Part shown: positions 9,070-21,559 of the stretch, piece after piece | Layout of the letters: each line of letters starts with the position of its first letter | Position numbering within the stretch: position 1 is the stretch's first letter | Assembly: GCF_007997035.1 (NCBI RefSeq) | Contig: NZ_VOSS01000077.1 | Coordinates: forward strand, 1 to 59,304 | From: Ralstonia sp. TCR112 | GTDB taxonomy: Bacteria > Pseudomonadota > Gammaproteobacteria > Burkholderiales > Burkholderiaceae | Direction: 5' to 3' | Length of the DNA: 59,304 bases | Translations under genes and position numbers: made by a program | Notes under the pieces: generated by a model | The model's input: only the letters and a program-made list of their open reading frames with translations | What the model was told of the DNA's origin: nothing | The model's database searches: none

Positions 9070-9398
9070 TCGCCTGACCCTCTTTTTATTGTTGCTGTTG
9101 ATTGGAGAGAAAGTCCGTTGAGCGCCTGGCGAGTGCCGGTCGTTTTTTGCGATCCCGTTCGCAAAACCGGCGCCGCCAGATCGGCCGCACAATGCTTTCC
9201 CTTCCGCGTCCCCGCACGGTTTGCGGGCACATGATATAGATCGGTCTACTTTAGCGGGAAGCCGGCGCCGTTGTGTTATCAAAGCGTAAAGCTGACATGG
9301 CAACAACACTTTGCGGCCAATCGGGTTCGGGGCAGATCCCCAAGGTCGCAACAAAGCGCCGATGCTAAGATGCGGCACAGCAATCAAGAGAGGTGGCA
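9070..9398. promoter_or_regulatory. Divergent promoter region with a TetR-type operator
   Basis: The region lies between the Sel1 lipoprotein and the tetR gene. TAGATCGGTCTA at 9237-9248 is a near-perfect 12-base palindrome of the TAGACC...GGTCTA type bound by many TetR repressors, and sits in an AT-rich patch (ATGATATAGATC). The rest shows no gene. Autoregulation by the adjacent TetR protein is likely but inferred. Confidence 0.5.
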
Positions 9399-9977
9399 AT
9401 GCGCGCAAGCAAGCGCCAACAGGTGGTGGACAAGGCCGGCGAGCTGTTTTCCCAGCACGGCTTTCACCCCGTGGGCGTCGATTGGATCATCGATGAGTCG
9501 GGCGTTGCTCGTATGACGCTGTACCGCCACTTCGCCGGCAAGGAAGATCTGATCAAGGAAGTGCTGGAGCAGCGCTATACGTTCGTCATGGGCAGCATTG
9601 CAGAGAAGCTCAGCCCCATGCCCGACGCCACCGCCCGCCTCAAGGGCATCTTCGACTGGTACGGCACGTGGTTCCGCACCCCCGAGTTTGCGGGCTGCCT
9701 GTTCGAACGCGCGCTGGCGGAGTTTGGCGCCACCTGCCCCAAGGTGACCGACGTGGCGGTGCGCTACCGCGACGATCTGCTCGCCATGATGGAAACGCTG
9801 CTCAAGGATGTGGTGCCCGCCAAGACGGCACGGCAACTTGCGGGGGTCTACGTGATGCTGCTGTCGGGCGCCACGGCCGACGCCCGCGCGATCGGCGATC
9901 CGTCCGCCGCGTCGCAAGCCTGGCACGCCGCCGAAACCCTGCTGAACCAGGCCAGGGCCGCCACGGAAGCGGTCTGA
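9399..9977 (+). CDS. TetR/AcrR family transcriptional regulator
   Basis: A 192-residue repressor. The N-terminal helix-turn-helix spans about residues 8-53, including GFHPVGVDWIIDESGVARMTLYRHFAGKE with the YRHF recognition helix. The C-terminal ligand-binding domain carries a Cys in EFAGCLFERALAE that is common in a TetR subgroup. ATG at 9399 is chosen since AGAGAGG lies five bases upstream; a GTG two codons earlier is too close to that site. A candidate operator lies at 9237-9248. The inducer and other target genes cannot be told from this sequence. Confidence 0.88.
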   Translation: MRASKRQQVVDKAGELFSQHGFHPVGVDWIIDESGVARMTLYRHFAGKEDLIKEVLEQRYTFVMGSIAEKLSPMPDATARLKGIFDWYGTWFRTPEFAGCLFERALAEFGATCPKVTDVAVRYRDDLLAMMETLLKDVVPAKTARQLAGVYVMLLSGATADARAIGDPSAASQAWHAAETLLNQARAATEAV

Positions 9978-9991
9978 TCCCGCCGCGCAAG

Positions 9992-10762
9992 CTACCAACC
10001 GCGCTGCACCCGACGCGCAATCATCGACGGCAACCGCAGCATGCCCTCCGCCGTCAGGCGCAGATGCATCCCGAAGAGCAGGACGTTGTCCCGCAGATAC
10101 CGGAAATGCGACACCCCGCCCTCGTGCGCACGGAAGTAGCGCACCGGCGCCGCCAGCCGGATCGGGCGCACGCCCGCCCAACATAGGCGTACCGCCGCTT
10201 CCGGATCGAAATCGAAACCGCGCATCCATGTGTGCCGACGCATGATCTCCGCGAGCGGCGCTATCGGATAGACGCGAAAGCCGAACAACGTATCGCCAAT
10301 ACCGGCCCACAGGGTCTCAATGTCTGCGCAGCCATTGGAGAGGCGCCGGCCGTGCACGCGAATCTGCGGCGCCGTCGCGTCGAACACCGGTTGGCCGAGG
10401 ATCATCGCGTCGGGCGCAGCCTGCGAAGCGGCCATGAATTCGGGGATGAGGTCTGCGGGATGCTGGCCATCGGCGTCCATGGTCAGCACGTAGGAAAAGC
10501 CTGCCGAGGCAGCGGCTTCCAGCCCGGCCAGCACGGCCACGCCTTTGCCGCGATTGCGCGGCAGCACGATCACGCGCAGCCCCGGGTCTTGCGCGGCCAT
10601 GGCCTGCAGGCGTTCGGTGCTGCCGTCGGTGCTGCCGTCTGCCACGACCCAGACAGGGTTCCACTGCGCACGCGCGCTGCGTACGGTGTCGTCAACCTTG
10701 GGGCCAGGGTTGTAGCTGGGAATCAGAACGAGGTGCGTGGTGGAAGCGCCGGTCATCGGCAT
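9992..10762 (-). CDS. Glycosyltransferase family 2 of the aryl-polyene-like cluster
   Basis: A 256-residue GT-A glycosyltransferase. IPSYNPGPKVDDTVRS near residue 15, ADGSTDGSTERL near 40 and the metal-binding TMDADGQHPADLIP near 95 match the GT2 nucleotide-sugar fold. In E. coli aryl polyene clusters the corresponding activity is fused to an acyltransferase (ApeJ); here the two are separate genes on opposite strands. It lies downstream of the acyl carrier protein gene on the same strand. It probably glycosylates the polyene-like lipid or its anchor, but donor and acceptor are unknown. Confidence 0.85.
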   Translation of the reverse strand: MPMTGASTTHLVLIPSYNPGPKVDDTVRSARAQWNPVWVVADGSTDGSTERLQAMAAQDPGLRVIVLPRNRGKGVAVLAGLEAAASAGFSYVLTMDADGQHPADLIPEFMAASQAAPDAMILGQPVFDATAPQIRVHGRRLSNGCADIETLWAGIGDTLFGFRVYPIAPLAEIMRRHTWMRGFDFDPEAAVRLCWAGVRPIRLAAPVRYFRAHEGGVSHFRYLRDNVLLFGMHLRLTAEGMLRLPSMIARRVQRGW

Positions 10763-10816
10763 GGCGTCGGTCCGGCCAAACGTTGAAAGCGGAATGCGTC
10801 GGGCGCTGGCGCGAGC

Positions 10817-11077
10817 CTATCGCGTGCGGTGCGCTGCCACGTAGGCCGCGAGCGAGCCCAGCGAGGCGAAGATCTTCTGGTTGTCGGGATCGCCCGAGCG
10901 CAGCTCGAAGCCGTATTTCTTGGAGATCAGCAGCGCAACTTCGAGGATATCGATGGAATCGAGCCCGAACCCTTCGCCATACAGCGGTGTGTCGGCGGTC
11001 AGGGCATCGAGTTGAATGTCTTCGAGATTCAGTTCGCCGATCATGAGCGCGGCGAGCTCTTTTTCCAGGTCGTTCAT
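10817..11077 (-). CDS. Acyl carrier protein of the aryl-polyene-like cluster
   Basis: An 86-residue acyl carrier protein. The phosphopantetheine attachment serine lies in GLDSIDILEV, with the usual helix II sequence after it. The N-terminus MNDLEKELAALMIGELNLED is like ApeE/ApeF carriers, which is why the ATG at 11077 is preferred to the in-frame ATG at 11101. It would hold the growing chain for the ketosynthase and dehydratases encoded divergently. Only one ACP is found, whereas E. coli-type clusters have two. It precedes the glycosyltransferase by 54 bases, probably as one operon. Confidence 0.9.
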   Translation of the reverse strand: MNDLEKELAALMIGELNLEDIQLDALTADTPLYGEGFGLDSIDILEVALLISKKYGFELRSGDPDNQKIFASLGSLAAYVAAHRTR

Positions 11078-11483
11078 CGGTCTTGCAACCACAGGCGGCA
11101 TGCGGTGGGGATTGCGGCAGAGCCAACGACGATCTCCTTGCCCGAAGCCCCTGCCTTGTCCAGCCCAGCCTGTGAAAGGGGGTCGTTTAAGCTAGGCGGA
11201 TTCTAGACGAAGGGTCACACCCCGTATAGCGCGAAACCGTGACAAAGACCGCATATCGCGACGATGACAGGAAGTGACGCAAACGATTCAACGGCTTGTC
11301 TGGCACCGCAAAGCGGGAAGGGGCACCGAGGAAGGCTCTGTCAAGCGCCGTACATCCGGTTACAAACACATCGCCAAGGGATCGGGCAAGACAGGCCCGC
11401 GGCCCTAGAATGTGCCCGCCCCATGATCGATTTGCCCGCTCACTGACAACCATGCAGTGCCACTCCTGCCACCTCGTCCCGCC
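11078..11483. promoter_or_regulatory. Divergent control region of the aryl-polyene-like cluster
   Basis: About 400 bases separate the ACP/glycosyltransferase unit from the rightward biosynthetic operon. TAGAAT at 11406-11411 is a plausible rightward -10 box. A CGGGC-N7-GCCCG inverted repeat (11383-11399) lies just upstream of it, where an operator could sit. No regulator gene and no convincing small open frame were found here. Confidence 0.45.
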
Positions 11484-12158
11484 ATGCACCCACTGACCAG
11501 CTTTGCGCGCGGCGCTGCCGGCGTGGGCGCCGTGGTGGCGTATCAGGTCGGCGCGCATTACGCAGCGGCCACGCCGGGCGCGCATGGCGTGGGCCTTGCG
11601 ATGGCACTGGTGCCGCCGTTGGCAGTTGCGCTGGTGGCAGCCGCACGTTCCACGCATCGCACATGGCTGGTGCCGCTGTGGCTGCTCGTCTGTGCAGTGC
11701 TGTGGATGGTGCGCGCGCCGCTGGCCATGCATTTCGACTGGGGCCTGTACGCAGAACATGCAAGCTTCAACCTGATGATGGCCTACGTGTTCGGCCGCAC
11801 GCTGGTGGCGGGGCGCGAGCCGCTGTGCACGCGCTTTGCCCACATCGTGCACGGCACGCTCACGCCGCGCATTGCGCGCTACTCGCGGCAGGTCACGCTC
11901 GCATGGACGCTGTTCTTCCTCGCAACCGCGGCCGTGTCCACCGTCTTGTTTGCCACGGCATCGACCGTAACGTGGTCGACGTTCGCGAACTACCTTTCGC
12001 TGCCGTTGGTGGGCGTGATGTTCGTGGCGGAATACCTCTGCCGCCGCATCGTGCTGCGCGGCGAGCCGCGCTCCAGCCTGTTCGATGCGGTACGCGCCTA
12101 TCGGCAATCGCAGCAATCGGGGCACGCCACACCCATCGCCACAGAGCGGTCCCGCTGA
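11484..12158 (+). CDS. COG4648-type integral membrane protein (ApeG-like)
   Basis: A 224-residue membrane protein with about six hydrophobic segments. The motif HFDWGLYAEHASFNLMMAYVFGRTL near residues 77-101 is typical of the COG4648 proteins found almost only in aryl polyene and related clusters. The biochemical role is not established; a part in membrane assembly or export is assumed. A GTG nine codons upstream is an alternative start, and neither has a strong ribosome-binding site. It is the first gene of the rightward operon, and the AMP-ligase gene follows after 25 bases. Confidence 0.75.
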   Translation: MHPLTSFARGAAGVGAVVAYQVGAHYAAATPGAHGVGLAMALVPPLAVALVAAARSTHRTWLVPLWLLVCAVLWMVRAPLAMHFDWGLYAEHASFNLMMAYVFGRTLVAGREPLCTRFAHIVHGTLTPRIARYSRQVTLAWTLFFLATAAVSTVLFATASTVTWSTFANYLSLPLVGVMFVAEYLCRRIVLRGEPRSSLFDAVRAYRQSQQSGHATPIATERSR

Positions 12159-12183
12159 ACCCACACGCCTCAAGATTTGCTTC

Positions 12184-13881
12184 ATGCCGACTTACCCGCT
12201 GGTCTCCCATTCAACGCTCGACCACCCGCTCGCTTGGCGTGACGGCGCGCCCGTTTCAGCGCGCACGTTCCTGGCCGACGTGATGGCGCTGGCCCCGATG
12301 CTGCCGCCCGGCGGCCACGTGTTCAACGCCTGCGCAGACCGCTACCGCTTTGCCGTCGGCCTGTGCGCGACGCTGGTGGCAGGCAAGGTCAGCCTGCTGC
12401 CGCCCATGCAGACGCCGCAGATGGTGCGTCAGCTCTCCGCGTTCGCCCCGGAGGTGTTCTGCCTGCACGACGCGGCTGCATGCCCCGTCGACCTGCCAGG
12501 CTTCCGTTATCCCGACGCGTTAACCGGCGACGCATCGCCCATCGACGTGCCGCAGATCGACGCGTCACAGGTCATGGCGGTGTTGTTCACGTCCGGATCC
12601 ACCGGTACGCCGGTGCCGCATCGCAAGACGTGGGGCGCGCTGGTGCGCTGCATGCGCACGGCAGTCGACCACCTCGGCCTGAGCGACGGGCGCGCTTTCA
12701 CGCTGGTCGGCACCGTGCCGGCGCAGCATATGTACGGCTTTGAGGTGACGGTGCTGCTGGCCCTGCAGGGCGGCTTGGCGTTCAGCAACCGGCAGCCGTT
12801 CTATCCGGCGGACATTCGGGAGGCGCTGGAAGCCGTACCGCAGCCGCGCGTGCTGGTGACCTCGACGGTGCATCTGCGGGCATTGCTAGCATCGGAGCCT
12901 GCGTTGCCGAGCGCATCGCTCGTGCTGTCGGCGACTGCGCCGCTGTCGGAAGCGCTGGCGCGGGAGGCCGAGACGCGCCTGTCCGCGCCGCTCCTGGAGA
13001 TTTACGGCAGCACCGAAACCGGCCAGATTGCAACGCGCCGCACCGCACAGCAAACCGCGTGGCGCCTGTACCCCGACGTCCGCATGGAGTCGCGCCCCGG
13101 CACGCCGGAAGACGACGGCCCGGCCGTGTGGGTCTACGGCGGACACGTCGAAGCCGCGGTGCCGATGGGAGATGTAATCGAGCTGATCGACGAGACGCAC
13201 TTTCTGCTGCACGGGCGCAAGGCGGACTTGATCAACATTGCCGGCAAGCGGTCGTCGCTGGCGTATCTGAACCACCAGCTCAATGCGATTCCGGGTGTGG
13301 AGGATGGCGTGTTCTACATGCCGGACGATACGCCCGCCGCCCCACGCACGCACGGCGGCGCGGCAGTCACGCGCCTCGTGGCGCTGGTTGTAGCGCCGGG
13401 GCTGAGCGCAGCGGATGTACTGCGCGCGCTGCACGACCGCATCGATGCAGCATTTCTACCGCGCCCGCTGCTGCTGGTGGACGCGCTGCCCCGCAACGAG
13501 ACCGGCAAACTGCCCCGCGATGCGCTGGCCGCGCTGGTCGCACAGCATTCGAATCGCAGCCCAGACAAGCCCGCCATGCGCTTCACCATTCCCGCTGATC
13601 ACCCGGCGCTGCCGGGACATTTTCCCGGTCACCCGATCGTGCCGGGGGTGGTGCTGCTCGACCATGCGCTCCACACGATCGGTGCGGCGCTGGGCCGCTC
13701 GTTGGATGCTTGCAAGATCAGCTCAGCCAAGTTTCTCAGCCCTGCGGCGCCCGGGGAATGGCTCGACCTCGCGTTCGAAACGACGGCGAGCAATGCCGTG
13801 CGCTTCACCATCCGCGCGGGCGAGCGCGAAGTGGCCAGCGGCGTGCTGTCCGCATCGGCGCCGGAGGGCGTTGCCGCATGA
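12184..13881 (+). CDS. AMP-ligase fused to a FabZ-like dehydratase (ApeH-ApeI fusion)
   Basis: A 565-residue two-domain enzyme. Residues 1 to about 450 are an ANL-type ligase with LFTSGSTGTPVPH near 136, YGSTETGQ near 275, GRKADLINIAGKR near 344 and the catalytic lysine in NETGKLPR near 440. Residues 460-565 are a hot-dog dehydratase-like domain with HPALPGHFPGHPIVPG. In E. coli clusters these are separate proteins, ApeH and ApeI. The ligase would activate the aryl starter acid and load it on the ACP; the dehydratase-like domain would remove water in each cycle. Starter identity is unknown. Its TGA overlaps the next ATG. Confidence 0.85.
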   Translation: MPTYPLVSHSTLDHPLAWRDGAPVSARTFLADVMALAPMLPPGGHVFNACADRYRFAVGLCATLVAGKVSLLPPMQTPQMVRQLSAFAPEVFCLHDAAACPVDLPGFRYPDALTGDASPIDVPQIDASQVMAVLFTSGSTGTPVPHRKTWGALVRCMRTAVDHLGLSDGRAFTLVGTVPAQHMYGFEVTVLLALQGGLAFSNRQPFYPADIREALEAVPQPRVLVTSTVHLRALLASEPALPSASLVLSATAPLSEALAREAETRLSAPLLEIYGSTETGQIATRRTAQQTAWRLYPDVRMESRPGTPEDDGPAVWVYGGHVEAAVPMGDVIELIDETHFLLHGRKADLINIAGKRSSLAYLNHQLNAIPGVEDGVFYMPDDTPAAPRTHGGAAVTRLVALVVAPGLSAADVLRALHDRIDAAFLPRPLLLVDALPRNETGKLPRDALAALVAQHSNRSPDKPAMRFTIPADHPALPGHFPGHPIVPGVVLLDHALHTIGAALGRSLDACKISSAKFLSPAAPGEWLDLAFETTASNAVRFTIRAGEREVASGVLSASAPEGVAA

Positions 13882-14840
13882 AGCGCACCGACTGGGCCGA
13901 GCGTCCGGAGCGCAGCAACCTCGCGCTGCTGCGGGTGATGACGTGGCTGTCTCTTCGGCTGGGGCGGCCGTTTGGCCGCGTCCTGCTGTGGCTGATTGCG
14001 ATGTATTTCGTCGCAGCGTCGCCGCAGGCGCGGCGTGCTTCGCGTGACTATCTGCAGCGCGCGCTCGGGCGGCCGGCCACGCTGCGTGAGGTGTTCCGCC
14101 ACATGTTCACCTTCGCCACGACCATCCATGACCGCATCTACCTGATCAGCGGCCGCTTCGATCTGTTCGACATCCGGTTGCAGGGCCAGCACCACGTGCA
14201 CGACGTGCTGGCGCAGGGGCGCGGCGCGTTCCTGCTCGGCGCGCACCTGGGCAGCTTCGAGGTGGTGCGGGCGCTCGGCCGCACGGTGCCGGACCTGCGC
14301 GTGGCCGTCGCCATGTACGAAGAGAACGCACGCAACATCAACGCCGCGGTTGCCGCCATCAACCCGGCGGCGGCGCCGGAGGTCATTCCGCTGGGCCGGG
14401 TAGACGCCATGCTGCAAGTGCGCGAAGCGCTGGATGACAACCGGCTCGTCGGCATGCTGGCCGATCGCACGCTGCTGCGCGACGCGGGGCCGTCCGTTCA
14501 GCAGATGGATTTTCTCGGCAGCCCTGCAGCGTTTCCGGTGGGGCCGTTGCACATGGCGGCCATGCTGAAGCGCCCCGTGCTGTTCATGACGGGGCTGCAC
14601 CTCGGCGGCAACCGCTACGCCGTACATTTCGATCCGTTGGCGGACTTCACCGATGTGCGCCGCGAAGACCGCGCCGCCGCCGTGCAAGCCGCCCTCGCCC
14701 GCTATGTGGAACGCGTTGAACACTACTGCCGCATCGCGCCCTACAACTGGTTCAATTACTTCGACTTCTGGCAGGATGCCGACGCCGCCGGCGCGCAGGA
14801 TCACGCCCCGGCCGAGCGCCAGACCACCCCAACGCCATGA
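13878..14840 (+). CDS. LpxL/HtrB-like lysophospholipid acyltransferase of the cluster
   Basis: A 320-residue membrane-bound acyltransferase. A hydrophobic anchor lies near residues 30-48. The catalytic H-x4-E motif is GAHLGSFEVVRA near residue 120, and LADRTLLRD near 200 matches the second LPLAT block. It corresponds to the acyltransferase half of ApeJ. It should transfer the finished acyl chain from ACP to a lipid or sugar acceptor at the inner membrane. It overlaps the genes on both sides by ATGA, so translation is coupled. Confidence 0.85.
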   Translation: MKRTDWAERPERSNLALLRVMTWLSLRLGRPFGRVLLWLIAMYFVAASPQARRASRDYLQRALGRPATLREVFRHMFTFATTIHDRIYLISGRFDLFDIRLQGQHHVHDVLAQGRGAFLLGAHLGSFEVVRALGRTVPDLRVAVAMYEENARNINAAVAAINPAAAPEVIPLGRVDAMLQVREALDDNRLVGMLADRTLLRDAGPSVQQMDFLGSPAAFPVGPLHMAAMLKRPVLFMTGLHLGGNRYAVHFDPLADFTDVRREDRAAAVQAALARYVERVEHYCRIAPYNWFNYFDFWQDADAAGAQDHAPAERQTTPTP

Positions 14841-15433
14841 CTGCAACGCGCCTATTCCCCCGCGCCTTCCTGGCCATGCTCGCAGCCAGCCTGTTGGCCG
14901 CGACCGCCCACGCCGCAGATACCGCCTGGACGCTCGACCGACTGATGTCGACCCTCGCACGCAACAAGTCGGGGCGCGCGACGTTCACGGAAACAAAGAC
15001 GCTCTCGATCGCAGCGCAGCCCATCGAATCCTCCGGCGAGCTGGTGTTCGTCGCGCCCGATCATCTGGAAAAGCGCACCCTGGCGCCGAAGCCCGAGCAC
15101 CTCGTGATTGACGGCGACAAGCTGACCGTCGAGCGCAACCAGCGCAAGTTCACGATGCCGCTGTCGCAGTACCCCGAGCTGGGCGCCTTTATCGAGAGCA
15201 TCCGCGCGACGCTGGCCGGTAACCGCTACGCGCTCGAAGCGATCTACAAGGTCGCCATCGCAGGCCACGGCGATGACTGGACGCTCACGCTTTCGCCGCT
15301 CGACGCACGCATGCAGAAGGTCGTCAGCACCATCACGCTGGAAGGCACGCGCGACGTGCTGCGCAGCGTCGCCATCCGCCAGGCCGACGGCGATCATTCG
15401 CTGATGCGCCTGCAACGCGTGCCCGGCAACTGA
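14837..15433 (+). CDS. LolA-like outer-membrane lipid carrier (ApeL-like)
   Basis: A 198-residue periplasmic protein with a signal peptide ending near residue 27 (TAHAAD). The body has the alternating strands of the LolA/LolB fold, with GRATFTETKTLSIA and ESSGELVFVAPDHLEKRTL at about residues 48-85. Such proteins in aryl polyene clusters are thought to carry the product across the periplasm, working with the MMPL exporter that follows. This is a dedicated paralogue, distinct from the general LolB encoded at 49362-49985. Start is fixed by the ATGA overlap. Confidence 0.85.
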   Translation: MTATRLFPRAFLAMLAASLLAATAHAADTAWTLDRLMSTLARNKSGRATFTETKTLSIAAQPIESSGELVFVAPDHLEKRTLAPKPEHLVIDGDKLTVERNQRKFTMPLSQYPELGAFIESIRATLAGNRYALEAIYKVAIAGHGDDWTLTLSPLDARMQKVVSTITLEGTRDVLRSVAIRQADGDHSLMRLQRVPGN

Positions 15434-15446
15434 GGACGGCGCGCAC

Positions 15447-17867
15447 ATGAAACGCTTGCACGCCCTGCGTCGGCCTGCGGTGCTGGTCTGGTTGACCGGC
15501 CTGCTGCTGTGCGCGGTCGTGATCGGACGTACCAGCTTTACGGCGGACTTGTCGGCGTTTCTGCCGCGATCGCCGAGTGCGGAGCAGCGTGTGCTGGTCG
15601 ACCAATTGCGCGAGGGGCTGGTGTCGCGGCTCATCCTCGTCGGCATCGAGGGCGGCGACGCGGTCACGCGCGCAACGCTGTCAAAGCAGCTGGCCGCCAC
15701 GCTGCGTGCCGACGCACGGTTCAGTGCCGTCAATAACGGCGAGCCCGTGAGCGAGGCCCGCGACCGGCAGTTCGTCTTCGACCACCGCTACGTGCTCAGC
15801 CCGGCTGTCACGCCACAGCGCTTTTCCACCGAAGGCCTGCACGCGGCGCTGGGCGAAAGTCTGGACCTGCTCAGTTCATCGGCCGGGCTCGTCGCCAAGA
15901 ACATGCTGCCGCGCGATCCGACCGGCGAGGTGGCGGCGCTCGTCGGCCAACTCGACAACACGGCGCTGCCGTCGTCGATGCATGGCGTGTGGGCATCGCG
16001 CGATGGCCAGCGCGCCGTGCTGGTCGTGCAGACAGCTGCGGCCGGCTCCGACACCGATGCGCAGGCACAGGCCATCGATACCGTGCGCCGCGCATTCGAG
16101 GCGGCCGCCCGCACCGTGCCGAACGCGACGTCAACGCGCATCGTGATGACGGGCCCGGGCGTGTTCTCCGTGGAGTCACGCGACACCATCAAGCGCGACG
16201 TCGAGCGGCTTTCCACGGTGAGCCTCTTGCTGGTGGTGGCACTGCTGCTAACGGTGTACCGCTCGCCGCGCACGGTGGCGCTGGGCTTGCTGCCCGTGCT
16301 GTCCGGCGTGGCGGCAGGCGTGGCGGCCGTCAGCCTGACGTTCGGCGCGGTGCACGGGCTCACGCTCGGGTTCGGCACCACGCTCATCGGCGAGGCGGTC
16401 GACTATTCGATCTACCTGTTTGTGCAATCGGCCCGTCTGCACGGCGCCACCGCAAATGACAGCCTGCGCGCGTGGATTGCCACGTACTGGCCGACCATTC
16501 GCCTGGGTGTGCTGACCTCGGTGTGCGGCTTTGCGTCGATGCTGTTCTCAGGGTTTCCGGGGCTTGTGCAGTTGGGGCTGTATTCGATTGTGGGATTGGT
16601 GACGGCCGCGCTCGTGACGCGTTACGTGTTGCCGCATCTGCGTGGTGCAGAAGTAGCGACGCGTGATGTCTCGCGCGTGGGCACGTGGCTGACGCGAGCG
16701 ACGTCTGCCGCACCGCGCCTGCGCTGGCTGTTGGCGGCGGCGCTCATCGGCGCATGTACGGCGCTTGTGTTGCACCGCGATGGCTTGTGGAGCCGCGAAC
16801 TCGCCGCGCTGAGCCCCGTGCCCGCGAAGAGCCAGGCGCTCGACGCCAGCCTGCGCGCAGACGTGGGTGCGCCCGATGTGCGCTATCTGGTGGTGATTCC
16901 GGCTGCAACGGAACAGGCGGCGCTGGAAGGCGCCGAGAAGATCTCCGCGCAACTGCAACCGCTGGTAGACAACGGCGTGCTCGCCGGCTTCGAAAATCCC
17001 GCGCGTTATCTGCCGAGCGATGCCACGCAGCAAGCGCGCCTTGCAAGCCTGCCCCCCGCCGATGCGCTGGCCGCCCGCATGCGCAACGCCGTTGAAGACC
17101 AGCCGATCCGCGTGAAGCCCGATCTCTTCGCGCCGTTCATCGCCGATGTGGAGGCGGCACGCACGCAGCCCCTTTTGCGGCGTGCAGACCTGAAGGGCAC
17201 GTCGATGGCATTGGCGGTGGACGCACTGCTGACCGAGCGCGCCGGCCAATGGAGCGCCATGCTGCCACTGCGTGCACCAGCGGCCGCGCCGGCCACGGCA
17301 AATAACGCCACAAATCGTCCCAGCCTGGACGCCGCCCCGATTCGCTCGGCCGTCGCACAAGCGAACGTGCCCGGCGCGCTCTTCGTCGACATGAAGGTTG
17401 AAGCCGATCGGCTGTACATGGATTACGTGCGGGAAGACCTTCGCCTGTCGCTCGCGGGTTTTGCGGCAATCGCGTTGCTGCTGCTCGTGGCGCTGCGCTC
17501 ACCGCAGCGGACACTCCGGGCGTTGGCGCCCTTGGTGGCGGCCGTCCTGGTGGTGACGGCCGGGTTTGCGCTGGCACGCGTGCCGCTGACCATCCTGCAT
17601 CTGGTCGGCATGCTGCTGATCGTGGCCGTGGGCTCGAACTACGCGCTGTTCTTCAATCAACGCACGCAGGCCATTGCGCCGCAAACGCTGGTATCACTGC
17701 TGGTGGCCAATCTGGCGACGGTGGCCGGCTTCGGCCTGCTGGCGTTTTCCCGCGTGCCGATGCTCGAAACCTTCGGGCTGACCGTCGGCCCGGGCGCCAT
17801 GCTTGCGCTGGTGTTTGCCGCCATCCTTGCGCCACGCGCCCATCACGATCAGCACGCCGCCGCATGA
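15447..17867 (+). CDS. MMPL/RND-family lipid exporter (ApeM-like)
   Basis: An 806-residue inner-membrane transporter with the duplicated RND layout: one membrane segment near residue 15, a large periplasmic loop, five segments at about 245-400, then a second segment near 430, a second loop and five more segments at about 660-795. LIGEAVDYSIYLFVQ near 315 is the usual charged or polar stretch of membrane helix 4. MMPL proteins flip or export long-chain lipids, so it should move the cluster's product to the outer leaflet or the LolA-like carrier. It lies 13 bases after the carrier gene and overlaps the deacetylase gene by ATGA. Confidence 0.88.
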   Translation: MKRLHALRRPAVLVWLTGLLLCAVVIGRTSFTADLSAFLPRSPSAEQRVLVDQLREGLVSRLILVGIEGGDAVTRATLSKQLAATLRADARFSAVNNGEPVSEARDRQFVFDHRYVLSPAVTPQRFSTEGLHAALGESLDLLSSSAGLVAKNMLPRDPTGEVAALVGQLDNTALPSSMHGVWASRDGQRAVLVVQTAAAGSDTDAQAQAIDTVRRAFEAAARTVPNATSTRIVMTGPGVFSVESRDTIKRDVERLSTVSLLLVVALLLTVYRSPRTVALGLLPVLSGVAAGVAAVSLTFGAVHGLTLGFGTTLIGEAVDYSIYLFVQSARLHGATANDSLRAWIATYWPTIRLGVLTSVCGFASMLFSGFPGLVQLGLYSIVGLVTAALVTRYVLPHLRGAEVATRDVSRVGTWLTRATSAAPRLRWLLAAALIGACTALVLHRDGLWSRELAALSPVPAKSQALDASLRADVGAPDVRYLVVIPAATEQAALEGAEKISAQLQPLVDNGVLAGFENPARYLPSDATQQARLASLPPADALAARMRNAVEDQPIRVKPDLFAPFIADVEAARTQPLLRRADLKGTSMALAVDALLTERAGQWSAMLPLRAPAAAPATANNATNRPSLDAAPIRSAVAQANVPGALFVDMKVEADRLYMDYVREDLRLSLAGFAAIALLLLVALRSPQRTLRALAPLVAAVLVVTAGFALARVPLTILHLVGMLLIVAVGSNYALFFNQRTQAIAPQTLVSLLVANLATVAGFGLLAFSRVPMLETFGLTVGPGAMLALVFAAILAPRAHHDQHAAA

Positions 17868-18727
17868 ACGCACCGACCACCTCACCGCTTGGCACGGCCC
17901 GTCGCTGGAAGCCGAGCCCGCTAATCAACGGCGCCCTGGCACTGCACGCCGGTGCGGCCGTTGCCGTCGCAGCCGACCCATCGACGTGGCCGTGGGCGGG
18001 CGGTGGCGTCGTCGCCTCGCATCTGGTGCTGATGGCCGGTGGTCTGTGGCCGCGCAGCCGCTGGCTGGGCCCGAACTGGACGCATCTGCCCGCCACGGCG
18101 GGGCGGCAGATCGCGTTGACCATCGACGACGGCCCTGACCCCGATGTCACGCCGCGCGTGCTGGACATGCTTGACCAATACGGCGCCAAGGCCACCTTCT
18201 TCTGCATCGGCGAATTGGCGCAGCGGCACCCGCGCTGCGTCGAGGCCATCGTCGCGCGCGGGCACGCGGTGGAAAACCACAGTCAGCGCCATCGGCACAC
18301 GTTCTCGCTGCAGGGGCCGGGCGCGTTGCGGCGCGAGATTGCCGCCGCACAGGACACGCTCACGCAGATCACCGGCACGCGCCCGCTGTTCTTCCGCGCG
18401 CCGGCCGGACTGCGCAATCCGTTTCTGGAGCCCGTGCTGTGTCAGCTTGGCCTGCAACTGGCGAGCTGGACGCGCCGCGGCTTCGACACCCGCTCGCGCA
18501 ACGCCGAAGCCATTGCCCACCGCCTGCTGCACGGTCTCGCGCCACGAGACATCCTGCTGCTCCACGACGGCCACGCGGCGCGCGATGCACACGGCGCGCC
18601 CGTTTTGCTGGCCGTGTTGCCGAAGGTGCTGGAAGCCGCTGCGCGCGCGCAATTGCAGTGGACAACGTTGCGCGCTGCCCTCCCGGCTCAGCCCGCGCAG
18701 ACCACCCGCCCGCAAATGGCCATTTGA
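17864..18727 (+). CDS. Polysaccharide deacetylase (NodB/CE4) family protein within the cluster
   Basis: A 287-residue protein. Two hydrophobic segments near residues 25-65 suggest membrane anchoring. The CE4 domain starts near residue 83 with TIDDGPDP, which supplies the metal and catalytic Asp pair, and has the metal ligands in NHSQRH near 143, the RAPAG motif near 183 and a final LLHDGH near 229. CE4 enzymes remove N-acetyl groups from sugars. It may trim a sugar added by the glycosyltransferase at 9992. This gene type is absent from the E. coli aryl polyene cluster. Confidence 0.85.
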   Translation: MNAPTTSPLGTARRWKPSPLINGALALHAGAAVAVAADPSTWPWAGGGVVASHLVLMAGGLWPRSRWLGPNWTHLPATAGRQIALTIDDGPDPDVTPRVLDMLDQYGAKATFFCIGELAQRHPRCVEAIVARGHAVENHSQRHRHTFSLQGPGALRREIAAAQDTLTQITGTRPLFFRAPAGLRNPFLEPVLCQLGLQLASWTRRGFDTRSRNAEAIAHRLLHGLAPRDILLLHDGHAARDAHGAPVLLAVLPKVLEAAARAQLQWTTLRAALPAQPAQTTRPQMAI

Positions 18728-18799
18728 TAAAATTTGTTAAGAATCGGCGCGCCAGTCTGCCGGACCATCCCACCCCACCATCGCCGCGACATCCTGCCC

Positions 18800-20017
18800 G
18801 TGAAGCCCGTCCTGCTCACGCATTTCACCGCCACGAGCTGCCTCGGACGTGGCCTTGACGCCACGCTCGACGCGTTGCGCGGCCAACGTGGCGGCCTCAC
18901 GCCGTGCACCTTTCCGCGCGCCGATCTCGACACGTGGATCGGCGAAGTGCCCGGAGCCGATGCCGCGCCGGTACGTGCAGATCTGGCCGATTTCGATTGC
19001 CGCAACAACAGGCTCGCCCAGATCGGCCTCACACAGGACGGTTTTGCCGAAGGCGTTGAAGCCGCCAAGGCGCGCCATGGTGCCGCGCGCGTCGGCGTAT
19101 TCATCGGCACCAGCACGTCGGGCATTCTCGAAACCGAACGCGCCTATCAGCAGCGCGATCCGCAAACGGGCGCGCTGCCGGCGAGTTTTCACTACGCGCA
19201 GACGCACAACATCTATTCGCCCGCCGCCTTTGTGCGTGCGTACTTTGGGCTGCGCGGGCCGGCCATGGTGATTTCGTCGGCGTGCTCGTCGGGCGCCAAG
19301 GTCTTTGCCTCGGCGCGGCGCATGCTGGCGGCGGGCCTGATCGATGCGGCGGTGGTCGGCGGTGTCGATTCGCTGTGCCTGACCGCGCTGTACGGTTTCA
19401 ACTCGCTTGAGCTGCTGTCGCGGCAACCTTGCCGACCGTACGATGCGGCGCGGGACGGCATCTCCATCGGCGAGGCCGCAGCCTTTGCGCTGCTGGAGCG
19501 CGCACCCGACGCCAACGGCGCGCTGGACGACGACGCCATCCTGCTGCTCGGCATTGGCGAATCGAGCGATGCGCATCACATGTCGTCGCCGCATCCCGAA
19601 GGATTGGGCGCCCGCGCGGCCATGGCGCAAGCGCTCGCCACCAGCGGCCTGAGCGCAACGGACATCGATTACATCAACCTGCACGGCACCGGCACGCCCA
19701 GCAATGACGCTGCGGAGGCGCGGGCCATCCAGGCGCTGTTCGACGGCACGGCGTGCAGTTCGACCAAGGGCGCGACCGGCCACACGCTGGGCGCGGCGGG
19801 AGCGTTGGAAGCCGTGATTACGGCGCTGGCGCTGCGCCATCAATTTCTGCCCGCCGGCATCAACACCACGCAGCCCGACCCGGCGTTGAACGTCAACTAC
19901 CTGACAACCAGCCGCGACGCGCCTGTTCGCGCGGCACTCAGCAATGCGTTTGGCTTTGGCGGCACGAATTGCAGCCTGGTCTTTGCCCGCGCAGGCGATG
20001 TGGGGCGAGCGTCATGA
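18800..20017 (+). CDS. Beta-ketoacyl-ACP synthase of the cluster (ApeO/ApeR-like)
   Basis: A 405-residue elongating ketosynthase. The catalytic triad is intact: Cys162 in SSACSSG, His295 in NLHGTGTPSND and His328 in GATGHTLGAAG. It should condense malonyl-ACP with the growing chain. GTG at 18800 is chosen because it opens the conserved N-terminus (KPVLLTHFTATSCLGRG) seen in this group; the preceding 66 bases are open but not family-like. Its stop overlaps the chain-length-factor-like gene, and the two probably form a heterodimer. Confidence 0.9.
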   Translation: MKPVLLTHFTATSCLGRGLDATLDALRGQRGGLTPCTFPRADLDTWIGEVPGADAAPVRADLADFDCRNNRLAQIGLTQDGFAEGVEAAKARHGAARVGVFIGTSTSGILETERAYQQRDPQTGALPASFHYAQTHNIYSPAAFVRAYFGLRGPAMVISSACSSGAKVFASARRMLAAGLIDAAVVGGVDSLCLTALYGFNSLELLSRQPCRPYDAARDGISIGEAAAFALLERAPDANGALDDDAILLLGIGESSDAHHMSSPHPEGLGARAAMAQALATSGLSATDIDYINLHGTGTPSNDAAEARAIQALFDGTACSSTKGATGHTLGAAGALEAVITALALRHQFLPAGINTTQPDPALNVNYLTTSRDAPVRAALSNAFGFGGTNCSLVFARAGDVGRAS

Positions 20018-20817
20018 CGGGCCTGAGCGTCTTCATCGAAAGCATCGGCGTACTGGGCCCCGGGCTGCAGGATTGGCCGCACACGGCTGACGTGCTCGCA
20101 GGCCGCGCACCCTACGCACACGCGCCGACGGAATTGCCGCCGCCAGCCGGCCTGCCGTCGGTGGAACGTCGTCGGACGGGGCCGGTAGTGAAACTCGCGC
20201 TGGCAGTCGGCCACGAAGCCGTTGCAGCGAGCGGACGCGATGCCGCGACGCTGGCCACGGTCTTCAGCTCGTCTGGCGGCGACGGCCATAACTGCAACGC
20301 CATCTGCGAGACCTTGGCAGGCGACGATCGCAAACTGTCGCCCACGCGCTTCCACAACTCCGTGCACAACGCGCCAGCCGGCTACTGGAGCATCGCCACG
20401 CACGCGATGGCGCCGTCCAACGTGCTGTGCGCGTACGACGGCAGCTTTGCCGCCGGCCTGCTGGACAGCCTCTGCCAGGTCGCAATTGACGCCACGCCAA
20501 CGCTGCTGATCGCCTATGACGGCGACTACCCGGAACCGCTGAATGCGGTGCGGCCCGTGCCCGACACGTTTGGAGTGGCGCTGGTGCTCGCGCCCGAAGC
20601 CGGCCCGCGCACGCTCGCGCGCATTGACGTTGCGCTGACCGACGCGCCGCCGACGGCGTTGGCACATACCGGCCTGGAAACCCTGTGGCACGGCAACGCC
20701 GCAGCCCGCGCGCTGCCACTGCTGGAAGCGTTGGCCGCACGGCGCGCAGGCCGCGTGGTGCTCGAGTATTTGCCCGAGACCCGCGTGCAGATCGACATCA
20801 CCTTCGGCATGCCATGA
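20014..20817 (+). CDS. Ketosynthase-like chain-length-factor protein (ApeC-like)
   Basis: A 267-residue protein with a ketosynthase fold but without the catalytic cysteine. The region FSSSGGDGHNCNAICETL near residue 87 and the motif RFHNSVHNAPAGYWSIA near 110-127 are those of beta-ketoacyl synthase chain-length-factor proteins in aryl polyene clusters. It is much shorter than a full ketosynthase. By analogy it pairs with the preceding ketosynthase and sets chain length. Start is fixed by the ATGA overlap with the ketosynthase stop. Confidence 0.8.
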   Translation: MTGLSVFIESIGVLGPGLQDWPHTADVLAGRAPYAHAPTELPPPAGLPSVERRRTGPVVKLALAVGHEAVAASGRDAATLATVFSSSGGDGHNCNAICETLAGDDRKLSPTRFHNSVHNAPAGYWSIATHAMAPSNVLCAYDGSFAAGLLDSLCQVAIDATPTLLIAYDGDYPEPLNAVRPVPDTFGVALVLAPEAGPRTLARIDVALTDAPPTALAHTGLETLWHGNAAARALPLLEALAARRAGRVVLEYLPETRVQIDITFGMP

Positions 20818-21275
20818 CGTCAACTGCGCAGCCGGCTCTGCCACTCGACCGCAACTGGATCGCGGCGCGCATTCCGCACAGCGGCGCGATGTGTCTGCTC
20901 GACACCGTTGTCGCCTGGGACGATGCGCACATCCATTGCCGCGCCACAAGCCATCGTGACGCCGCCAACCCGCTGCGTTCGCACGGTCAACTGGCTGCCG
21001 TCTGCGGCATCGAATACGCCGCTCAGGCGATGGCCGTGCACGGCGCTCTATGCGATGCTGCGCAAGCACGTCCGCGCGCCGGCTTTCTTGCCAGCGTGCG
21101 CAGCGTTGAAGCCCACGTATCGCGTCTCGACACCATCGACGCACCGCTCGACATCGAAGCTGAACGCATCGGCGGCGACGGTAACAACGTGCTGTACCGA
21201 TTCACCGTGCGCAGTGGCGCACGCATCCTGTTGACCGGCCGCGCCGCCGTGGTGCTCGACGCGTCCGTTGCATGA
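20814..21275 (+). CDS. 3-hydroxyacyl-ACP dehydratase (ApeP-like)
   Basis: A 153-residue hot-dog fold protein. The motifs IPHSGAMCLLD near residue 20 and GIEYAAQAMAVHGAL near 65-79 mark the ApeP group of dehydratases. It should remove water from 3-hydroxyacyl-ACP to leave a conjugated double bond. The cluster therefore has two dehydratase domains, this one and the one fused to the ligase. It overlaps both neighbours by ATGA. Confidence 0.85.
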   Translation: MTSTAQPALPLDRNWIAARIPHSGAMCLLDTVVAWDDAHIHCRATSHRDAANPLRSHGQLAAVCGIEYAAQAMAVHGALCDAAQARPRAGFLASVRSVEAHVSRLDTIDAPLDIEAERIGGDGNNVLYRFTVRSGARILLTGRAAVVLDASVA

Positions 21276-21559
21276 ACCTGTTTGTGAGGATTCCCGCCGT
21301 GAAAGGTCGTCTGCTTTTGATCCCTGCGCTGCTGCTGGCGCTGCTCAGTCCCCTGGCCCATGCCGACTTGTCAGAGACCAAGGAAAACATCAAGCAGGAC
21401 ACAAAGGAAGCGGCCCGCAAGACCGGGCATGCCGCGAAGGAAGCCGGGCATGCGACGGCCAACGCCGCGCGTACGGTTGGCCATGGCGTGAAGAATGCGG
21501 CGCATGCGACCAAATGCGGCGTGAAGCATCTCTTCAAGAAGCCATGTGAGAGCGACTAG
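21272..21559 (+). CDS. Small secreted amphipathic-repeat protein ending the cluster operon
   Basis: A 95-residue protein whose ATG overlaps the dehydratase stop. A signal peptide ends near residue 31 (SPLAHA). The mature part has 11-residue-like amphipathic repeats, with ETKENIKQDTKEAARKTG, HAAKEAGHATANAARTVG and HGVKNAAHATKCG, similar to LEA-type or YtxH-like proteins. Two Cys lie near the end. A GTG at 21300 with GAGG upstream could be an alternative start and would still leave a signal peptide. No family function can be given; its coupling suggests a role with the cluster's product in the periplasm. Confidence 0.7.
   Translation: MNLFVRIPAVKGRLLLIPALLLALLSPLAHADLSETKENIKQDTKEAARKTGHAAKEAGHATANAARTVGHGVKNAAHATKCGVKHLFKKPCESD

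What the first reader, a model, noticed from the sequence alone, without database searches (positions are those of the whole stretch)
9992..21559. Compact aryl-polyene-like cluster lacking a ketoreductase and a second full ketosynthase
The set ACP, COG4648 membrane protein, AMP-ligase, two dehydratase domains, ketosynthase plus chain-length-factor-like protein, acyltransferase, LolA-like carrier and MMPL exporter matches the aryl polyene family of lipid pigments. ApeQ (ketoreductase), a second full ketosynthase, ApeK (thioesterase) and the DUF3261 lipoprotein are not seen, and only one ACP is present. The product could be a polyene made with housekeeping FabG, or a different lipid. That the cluster is functional and exports a lipid is inference from the families.
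Basis: partly seen in the sequence, partly recalled or inferred. Interest (0 to 1): 0.8.

Follow-up and report, generated by a model that had tools for sequence, protein, structure and literature searches.

The report
Pigment cluster with its reductase elsewhere
This Ralstonia gene cluster is a known type of yellow-pigment (xanthomonadin-like aryl polyene) pathway that has lost its own ketoreductase gene, and its relatives carry what looks like a stand-in reductase, left over from a second pigment cluster, elsewhere in the genome.

Summary
The cluster is real, intact and conserved. It is a xanthomonadin/arcuflavin-type aryl polyene cluster of Ralstonia; its R. solanacearum counterpart is in print. 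One ACP and a half-size chain-length factor are normal for this type, and its published clusters list no thioesterase. The odd gap is the ketoreductase (KR).

Cupriavidus, Burkholderia and one basal Ralstonia keep a KR between the glycosyltransferase and ACP genes (852 bp gap in that Ralstonia); 12 other Ralstonia loci have 38-64 bp there, best read as one deletion. All 14 KR-less Ralstonia genomes carry an ApeQ-type KR elsewhere: three in a second aryl-polyene cluster, ten as a lone gene at a flagellar locus (the site of two of those clusters), and the window's own genome as a copy split between frames. The KR-bearing Ralstonia has none at that site. Five KR-less clusters outside Ralstonia also have a KR elsewhere (5 of 5), against extra copies in 4 of 55 KR-bearing genomes.

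Best reading: ApeQ serves the cluster in trans. Housekeeping FabG is less likely, since A. baumannii FabG could not replace ApeQ in vitro. Chemistry and expression are untested.

The parts
9393..9977 (+).
   Evidence: ORF; found beside GT2 in 9 of the 14 Ralstonia loci; absent from L029, L030 and L032, and L028 and L034 are cut before it
9992..10762 (-). family-2 glycosyltransferase (arcE/ORF15 type)
   Evidence: PF00535 3.5e-23; conserved in Ralstonia loci
10763..10816 (.). site of the lost ketoreductase gene: GT2 and ACP now almost abut; relatives have a KR gene here
   Evidence: gap 38-64 bp in 12 KR-less Ralstonia loci, 852 bp with a KR in G007/L034; KR between GT2 and ACP in L041, L075, L092, L107, L109 and beside ACP near the end of the stretch in L062, L086, L093 (Cupriavidus, Burkholderia, Paraburkholderia)
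10817..11101 (-). acyl carrier protein, XanC/AcpP2 type (PRK09184), serine motif intact
   Evidence: NF006617 2.6e-44 over cut-off; motif in 14 of 14
11102..11483 (.). divergent intergenic region, presumed promoters of both units
   Evidence: no convincing operator repeat
11484..12158 (+). COG4648/ApeG-like membrane protein
12184..13881 (+). AMP-ligase (starter activation, ArcT/ApeH type) fused to a FabA/ApeI-like dehydratase domain with GHFPG motif
   Evidence: PF00501 4.6e-18; PF07977 4.4e-4 and PF22818 0.0036, both below their cut-offs; GHFPG in all 15 compared: 13 by pattern, the other two by eye
13878..14840 (+). LpxL-like acyltransferase
   Evidence: PF03279 3e-13
14837..15433 (+). LolA-like periplasmic lipid carrier
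   Evidence: PF19574 5.3e-23; flexirubin LolA2 NF053544 3.6e-16, below cut-off
15447..17867 (+). MMPL/RND-type exporter
   Evidence: PF03176 7e-20
17864..18727 (+). NodB-like polysaccharide deacetylase (arcN type)
   Evidence: PF01522 1.9e-29; found beside many betaproteobacterial relatives of this cluster
18734..20017 (+). elongating ketosynthase, Cys-His-His motifs intact
   Evidence: NF006618/PRK09185 6.8e-170 over cut-off; motifs 15 of 15
20014..20817 (+). half-size chain-length-factor-like protein (Lysobacter ORF16 / ArcJ type)
   Evidence: PF13723 4.1e-27; pattern around Gln155 and HNSVHN in 15 of 15
20814..21275 (+). ApeP-like hotdog dehydratase partner
   Evidence: PF22817 6.7e-05, below its cut-off; motif 15 of 15
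21272..21559 (+). small exported-looking protein, conserved, no family
   Evidence: no hit; homologues at the same place in Ralstonia and in some Burkholderia/Paraburkholderia

Best explanation
The locus is a xanthomonadin/arcuflavin-type aryl polyene cluster: the AMP-ligase loads a hydroxybenzoate starter on the single ACP, the KS plus half-CLF extends it, a ketoreductase and the two-part dehydratase make each double bond, and acyltransferase, glycosyltransferase, LolA and MMPL attach and export the lipid. Its own KR gene, which sat between the glycosyltransferase and ACP genes, was most likely deleted once in the stem of most Ralstonia. The KR step is then done in trans by an ApeQ-type reductase that belonged to a second, canonical aryl polyene cluster at a flagellar locus. 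Where that second cluster was lost, apeQ stayed. Shown by sequence: cluster type, absence of the KR at its old place, the retained apeQ and purifying selection on both. Inferred: that ApeQ works on this cluster's ACP, the starter (4-hydroxybenzoate from UbiC), the product and its export. In the window's own genome the lone KR is split between two frames, so there the pathway may be impaired, or the draft may hold an error.
For: KR in cis in relatives at the exact spot; one KR-less Ralstonia clade at 100/100 with KR-bearing G007 outside. ApeQ-type KR elsewhere in 14 of 14 KR-less Ralstonia: 10 lone, 3 in a canonical cluster, own split. apeQ is not at the flagellar site in G007 (KR in cis) or at the part of the site seen in G013 (no cluster). 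Canonical clusters of G005 and G012 lie at the same flagellar site; of the cluster DNA, four lone-gene loci keep only a halogenase-like flavin-oxidoreductase gene and apeQ, the others apeQ alone. The lone KR of G003 passes TIGR01831 (442 bits, cut-off 339); 10 of 10 lone copies have S140, Y153, K157, R148 and L185 and evolve at a median dN/dS of 0.056. Five KR-less clusters outside Ralstonia all have an ApeQ/xan-type KR elsewhere, against an extra one in 4 of 55 KR-bearing genomes (Fisher). A. baumannii FabG does not replace ApeQ in vitro (PMC8041823); KR is essential for the Lysobacter pigment (PMC3691225); R. solanacearum ACPs from both its xan-like (AcpP2) and ape-like (AcpP4) clusters each restore xanthomonadin in a Xanthomonas xanC mutant (PMC9542644), so parts of the two systems can be exchanged.
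Against: No biochemistry, expression or product was seen. In the window's own genome the trans KR is split between two frames. The lone KR's gene tree groups all orphans together (92/92) while the cluster tree needs at least 3 changes between lone and full state, so the history of loss and regain is unsettled. apeQ could be kept for another task. The xan-type in-cluster KRs carry I/V, not L, at position 185 and Gly, not Arg, at 12, so ApeQ is not a like-for-like replacement; R174, also discussed in PMC8041823, is in FabG too and tells nothing. The KR-less genomes fall into only about four lineages, so the genome-level Fisher value overstates independence. In some searches only the best 57 or 67 first-look candidates of the larger genomes were scored, and G007 is 88% complete.
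Confidence: 0.62

Rival explanations
1. Housekeeping FabG supplies the ketoreduction for this cluster, and the lone apeQ is irrelevant.
For: An intact fabG lies near fabF in the own genome, and a FabG-type match (about 1e-63) is found in 14 of 14 KR-less Ralstonia genomes; in the own genome FabG is the best unbroken match to the cluster-KR profile.
Against: A. baumannii FabG gave almost no polyene in vitro (PMC8041823). The own genome's FabG has Pro at 148 and Phe at 185, where the 29 APE- and xan-type KRs compared have Arg and an aliphatic residue. It does not explain why apeQ survives in 10 genomes under dN/dS 0.056, nor the pattern outside Ralstonia.
Confidence: 0.2
2. After losing the KR the cluster changed product: KS, CLF and DH now make a short or unreduced aryl-lipid rather than a polyene, and the trans KR is unrelated to it.
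For: No KR in cis, no XanB2-type chorismatase in the own genome, own trans KR split.
Against: Both dehydratase parts keep their motifs and stay under purifying selection (DH median dN/dS 0.115); a dehydratase needs the hydroxyacyl product of a KR.
Confidence: 0.1
3. The cluster is decaying and not functional in Ralstonia.
For: KR missing; one same-genus genome lacks the whole cluster (G013); KR at the second site broken in the own genome.
Against: All other genes intact in the own genome and recovered in 14 relatives; catalytic motifs kept; median dN/dS 0.07-0.175 for cluster genes in 12 or 13 KR-less loci.
Confidence: 0.06

Closest known systems
Xanthomonadin-like cluster of R. solanacearum GMI1000 around acpP2 (RSc0434), PMC9542644 (12 of 19 matching passages seen)
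   Same: Same genus; described as similar to the Xanthomonas pig cluster, lacking xanB2; AcpP2 48% identical to XanC and able to replace it.
   Different: The passages seen do not discuss a missing KR. They report a second, ape-like cluster (acpP4/acpP5) on the GMI1000 megaplasmid; the window's genome shows no second aryl-polyene KS (only two KS matches).
Arcuflavin (arc) cluster of Azoarcus sp. BH72, PMC3949708 (section with Table 1 and passages seen)
   Same: KS (arcK), N-terminal KS-domain protein (arcJ), dehydratases (arcI, arcS), AMP-ligase (arcT), ACP (arcV), acyltransferase, LolA (arcQ), exporter (arcP), glycosyltransferase (arcE) and polysaccharide deacetylase (arcN) all have counterparts here.
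   Different: arc also encodes KR (arcH), XanB2-type chorismatase (arcB), halogenase (arcA) and methyltransferase (arcM); none of these is among the genes of the window interval.
Lysobacter enzymogenes yellow-pigment cluster, PMC3691225 (abstract and passages seen)
   Same: One ACP, KS (ORF17) plus half-size CLF (ORF16), two DH, no thioesterase in the cluster.
   Different: KR (ORF13) lies in the cluster and its deletion abolishes pigment; it has a XanB2 homologue (ORF5).
Canonical APE clusters of E. coli, Xenorhabdus and A. baumannii (PMC8253772 and PMC8041823; passages and one section seen)
   Same: ApeH/I/P/G/L/M/O-like functions; the trans KR is of ApeQ type.
   Different: Canonical clusters have two ACPs, a KS-CLF plus ApeR, and ApeQ in cis.

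Membership tests
Xanthomonadin/arcuflavin-type aryl polyene cluster | KS immediately beside a half-size CLF-like protein | tested here: met
   18734-20017 and 20014-20817 adjoin; PRK09185 and PF13723
Xanthomonadin/arcuflavin-type aryl polyene cluster | Single XanC-type ACP and AMP-ligase for an aromatic starter | tested here: met
   NF006617/PRK09184; PF00501; substrate not tested
Xanthomonadin/arcuflavin-type aryl polyene cluster | Two dehydratase (hotdog) parts | tested here: met
   C-terminal GHFPG domain of the ligase and ApeP-like protein; family scores below cut-offs, motifs conserved in 15 of 15
Xanthomonadin/arcuflavin-type aryl polyene cluster | LolA, MMPL exporter, acyltransferase, glycosyltransferase | tested here: met
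Xanthomonadin/arcuflavin-type aryl polyene cluster | Ketoreductase gene in the cluster | tested here: not met
   none between 9393 and 21559 nor in the other KR-less Ralstonia loci; GT2-ACP gap 38-64 bp. Apparent trans KR elsewhere in 14 of 14 KR-less Ralstonia, split in the own genome
Xanthomonadin/arcuflavin-type aryl polyene cluster | XanB2-type chorismatase supplying 3-HBA | tested here: not met
   TIGR04444: 0 of 1 genome, the own one; UbiC-type chorismate lyase present
Xanthomonadin/arcuflavin-type aryl polyene cluster | Yellow aryl polyene product | not testable with these tools
   needs extracts and mutants
Canonical APE (ApeA-R) cluster | Two ACPs, ApeR and ApeQ in cis | tested here: not met
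   one ACP, one full KS, no KR in the cluster
ApeQ reductase (the lone gene) | TIGR01831 over cut-off; SDR catalytic Ser-Tyr-Lys; R148 and L185 of AbApeQ | tested here: met
   442.1 bits against 338.85 for the G003 copy, the only one scanned; residues in 10 of 10 lone copies

The most novel reading that the evidence does not exclude
Two separate pigment clusters, often on different replicons, share one reductase: the xan-type cluster dropped its own KR because the ApeQ of a second cluster could serve both, and where that second cluster decayed, selection kept apeQ, in some genomes with a flavin-dependent halogenase-like gene, as a relic still working for the first. This would be a general rule, repeated in Ralstonia, Cupriavidus and the Dyella/Luteibacter group, for why clusters that look incomplete are not.
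Probability: 0.5. Interest if true: 0.68.

Novelty: new variant of a known kind. Interest (0 to 1): 0.52.

Why it matters
Aryl polyenes are among the most widespread bacterial pigments, and cluster-prediction tools judge a cluster by what lies next to it. If the reductase really works across loci, an 'incomplete' cluster can be functional, and a gene that looks like an unrelated lone FabG is a pathway component. It also gives a natural experiment on which KR features (Arg148, residue 185) allow exchange between xan-type and canonical systems, a question the A. baumannii work raised in vitro.

Tried and rejected
Relocation of the original cluster KR within Ralstonia: the profile of cluster KRs (A3) finds a true xan-type KR only in G007 (2.3e-140); in the other Ralstonia the best match is ApeQ-type (about 1e-82) or, in the own genome and G013, about 1e-63 to 1e-67. 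In the Accumulibacter MAG a xan-type KR does lie outside the cluster, so relocation can happen elsewhere.

XanB2-type chorismatase: absent from the own genome; other Ralstonia were not searched for it. A local operator for the TetR gene: no convincing inverted repeat. The 221-aa membrane protein beside the lone KR in G003 and the 95-aa protein at 21272-21559 match no Pfam or NCBIfam family. Plasmid collection: 30 records match the lone KR, none named Ralstonia (the tool warns that records near the window's genome may be left out); the C. metallidurans and C. campinensis regions have KS, MMPL, DH and flavin-oxidoreductase genes around their KR, so they are fuller clusters, not lone genes.

Rows left out of counts. 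Of the 80 named loci, 64 have a strong KR and L063 a cut one; L044 has an unrelated SDR; L058 has an ApeQ-like KR beside a second KS and was not judged; 13 have none. Of those 13, L037, L051, L077, L078, L080, L098, L099 and L113 are cut or show only part of a cluster and were not judged, L079 is Ralstonia, and L055, L082, L094 and L114, with L044, are the five KR-less ones. L094 shows no MMPL, LolA or COG4648 gene in its stretch. I submitted 11 loci and 50; L070 was not held and L088/L108 are one genome, giving 11 and 48 genomes. In one search the extra KRs of G075 and G084 are xan-type (G084 has two xan-type clusters), that of G082 ApeQ-type; the extra one among the six KR-bearing genomes is in G049. 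One search used a limit of 1e-70 and one of 1e-58; the five KR-less genomes also pass 1e-70. G009's contig ends before the GT2-ACP junction (L028), so its in-cluster KR absence rests on the whole-genome search. In the CLF comparison, Gln155 aligned with Gln in 4 of 6 relatives, Leu in L039 and Arg in L072. The dehydratase pattern missed L031 and L033 because of an H-to-R change after the GHFPG motif. Pairwise dN/dS reached 0.44 in CLF and 1.3 in the TetR gene, which I do not count as a cluster gene.

Frame break in the own KR: neighbouring genes are intact, but a second SDR on contig C276 also looks split, so an assembly error cannot be excluded; I did not pursue which change causes it.
Full report
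What is there. The interval holds an intact, compact set of genes. Leftward run glycosyltransferase GT2 and ACP; rightward run a COG4648-like membrane protein, AMP-ligase with a C-terminal dehydratase domain, acyltransferase, LolA-like protein, MMPL exporter, polysaccharide deacetylase, ketosynthase, half-size chain-length-factor-like protein, ApeP-like dehydratase and a 95-aa protein. The KS is 84-98% identical in 14 of 15 same-genus genomes, and the CLF is found in 15 of 16 including the own genome; G013 has neither. Gene order is the same in the 14 loci fetched, as far as each stretch reaches.

What type it is. The literature separates canonical APE clusters (two ACPs, KS-CLF plus ApeR, ApeQ; PMC8253772, passages) from the xanthomonadin type. 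In Lysobacter the latter has one ACP, a KS beside a protein resembling only the N-terminal half of a CLF, two DH and no thioesterase (PMC3691225; passages). The Azoarcus arc cluster adds a glycosyltransferase, LolA, exporter and polysaccharide deacetylase (PMC3949708; Table 1). The window cluster matches that type closely, apart from KR, XanB2, halogenase and methyltransferase and a few accessory genes. A Ralstonia counterpart is in print: acpP2 (RSc0434) of R. solanacearum lies in a cluster like the Xanthomonas pig cluster, without xanB2, and AcpP2 restores xanthomonadin in a xanC mutant (PMC9542644; passages). antiSMASH aryl polyene clusters are reported in all (PMC10073495) or most (PMC10196183) Ralstonia strains those authors tested (passages).

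The KR is the real gap. Of 80 named relatives found by KS, 64 show a strong KR of the FabG/ApeQ superfamily near the cluster and one a cut copy; most of the rest are cut stretches. In Cupriavidus, Burkholderia and Paraburkholderia the KR sits between GT2 and ACP, the spot where Ralstonia has nothing. In G007 (L034), which branches outside the other Ralstonia, a KR is still there: the GT2-ACP gap is 852 bp, against 38-64 bp in 12 other Ralstonia loci (54 bp in the window). A tree of seven concatenated cluster proteins puts the KR-less Ralstonia in one clade (100/100) with G007 outside. One deletion in the Ralstonia stem is the simplest reading. Nothing else decayed: dN/dS medians are 0.07-0.175 for cluster genes over 12 or 13 KR-less loci, and KS, ACP, CLF and DH motifs are kept.

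Where the reduction may come from. A profile of cluster KRs (A3) searched against 41 genomes finds in the 13 other KR-less Ralstonia (G001-G006, G008-G012, G014, G015) an SDR at about 1e-82, well above FabG (about 1e-63). In G001, G005 and G012 it is the ApeQ of a canonical APE cluster with KS, DH, MMPL and LolA around it. In the ten others it stands at a flagellar locus (fliM, fliP, fliR on one side, a DUF1275 gene and flgL-flgK on the other; families by Pfam) where the cluster profiles recognise nothing else. The two kinds of locus are the same site: in G005 and G012 the canonical cluster lies beside the same DUF1275-flgL-flgK genes, and DNA of the lone-gene loci matches the canonical locus over apeQ; in G014, G002, G010 and G015 it also matches over a halogenase-like flavin-oxidoreductase gene, the two pieces being 11 to 14 bp apart where the cluster has some 4.4 kb more. 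For G001 the site is on other contigs than the cluster. The lone gene is thus a relic of a second cluster. The G003 copy is an ApeQ by NCBIfam TIGR01831 (442 bits, cut-off 339); all ten keep Ser-Tyr-Lys and the ApeQ residues Arg148 and Leu185, where the own genome's FabG has Pro and Phe (numbering and role from PMC8041823), and they evolve at a median dN/dS of 0.056.

Association. In Ralstonia, 14 of 14 genomes with a KR-less cluster have an apeQ (10 lone, 3 in a full cluster, 1 split: the own genome). G007, with its KR in cis, has both flanks of the flagellar site on one contig and no apeQ there; in G013, without the cluster, the fliR side of the site shows none (its flgK side is on another contig). 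The whole-genome search found no ApeQ-band match in either, though it scored 67 of 131 and 67 of 93 candidates. Outside Ralstonia the five clusters judged KR-less (Cupriavidus respiraculi, an Accumulibacter MAG, two Dyella, one Luteibacter) all have an ApeQ- or xan-type KR elsewhere: in Dyella and Luteibacter within a canonical cluster, in C. respiraculi beside only a COG4648-like and a halogenase-like gene, in Accumulibacter alone beside pyruvate kinase. Of 55 KR-bearing genomes (G007, six, 48) four have an extra such KR. Fisher's test gives 4e-14 by genome; counting about four independent losses (my grouping from the organism names) it gives 1.5e-4. If the own genome is scored as lacking a working copy, the count is 18 of 19.

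Mechanism and its limits. KR deletion abolishes the Lysobacter pigment, and A. baumannii FabG gave almost no polyene in place of ApeQ (PMC8041823, section on this seen). Together with the above, the best reading is that ApeQ reduces this cluster's intermediates in trans. The ACP exchange shown by PMC9542644 makes cross-talk plausible but does not show it for KR. The starter is inferred to be 4-hydroxybenzoate, since the own genome has a UbiC-type chorismate lyase but no XanB2-type enzyme.

Against this reading. In the window's own genome the lone KR is read in two frames (PF13561 pieces), while the seven neighbouring genes examined are intact. A draft error is possible, since another SDR on contig C276 also looks split, but a real loss would mean that this strain depends on FabG or makes no polyene. 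The orphan genes form one group in their own tree (92/92), while the cluster tree needs at least three changes between lone and full state, so the second cluster was lost several times or regained by recombination.

Novelty. Six literature searches on xanthomonadin, aryl polyene, ApeQ, ketoreductase and Ralstonia (at most 20 papers listed each, out of up to 238 that matched) listed no paper that by title or abstract treats a KR-less xan-type cluster served by an ApeQ elsewhere; subscription journals are mostly not held, so this is not proof of absence. I rate it a new variant of a known kind.

Noticed in passing
L163:8044-9285 (and matching DNA in L167, L168, L169): A flavin-dependent oxidoreductase matching Pfam Trp_halogenase is kept beside the lone apeQ in four Ralstonia (G014, G002, G010, G015); the copy in G005's full cluster is 60% identical to one in C. 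respiraculi. It may tailor the polyene.
   Followed up: partly
L192:6718-9470: Cupriavidus respiraculi has a small run COG4648-like, halogenase-like, ApeQ-like KR apart from its main cluster (L044), in which no COG4648 gene was recognised.
   Followed up: partly
L190 against L163 and L169: The halogenase-like flank of G005's canonical cluster is 93-95% identical to G014/G015 but its apeQ only about 81% in DNA, suggesting that the full cluster was regained by recombination.
   Followed up: no
L188:6696-7462 (own genome, contig C249): The lone KR of the window's own genome is split between two reading frames; intact copies exist in ten relatives.
   Followed up: partly
L058:2745-5478: In this record a second KS, a DH and an ApeQ-like KR lie next to a xan-type cluster; it may be a further case of a shared KR and was not counted.
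   Followed up: no
window:21272-21559: A 95-aa protein with a signal-like start and a repetitive, charged remainder, conserved at the 3' end of the cluster in Ralstonia and some Burkholderia, with no family match.
   Followed up: no
G013: One same-genus genome lacks the whole cluster and, where the flagellar site could be seen, apeQ as well.
   Followed up: partly
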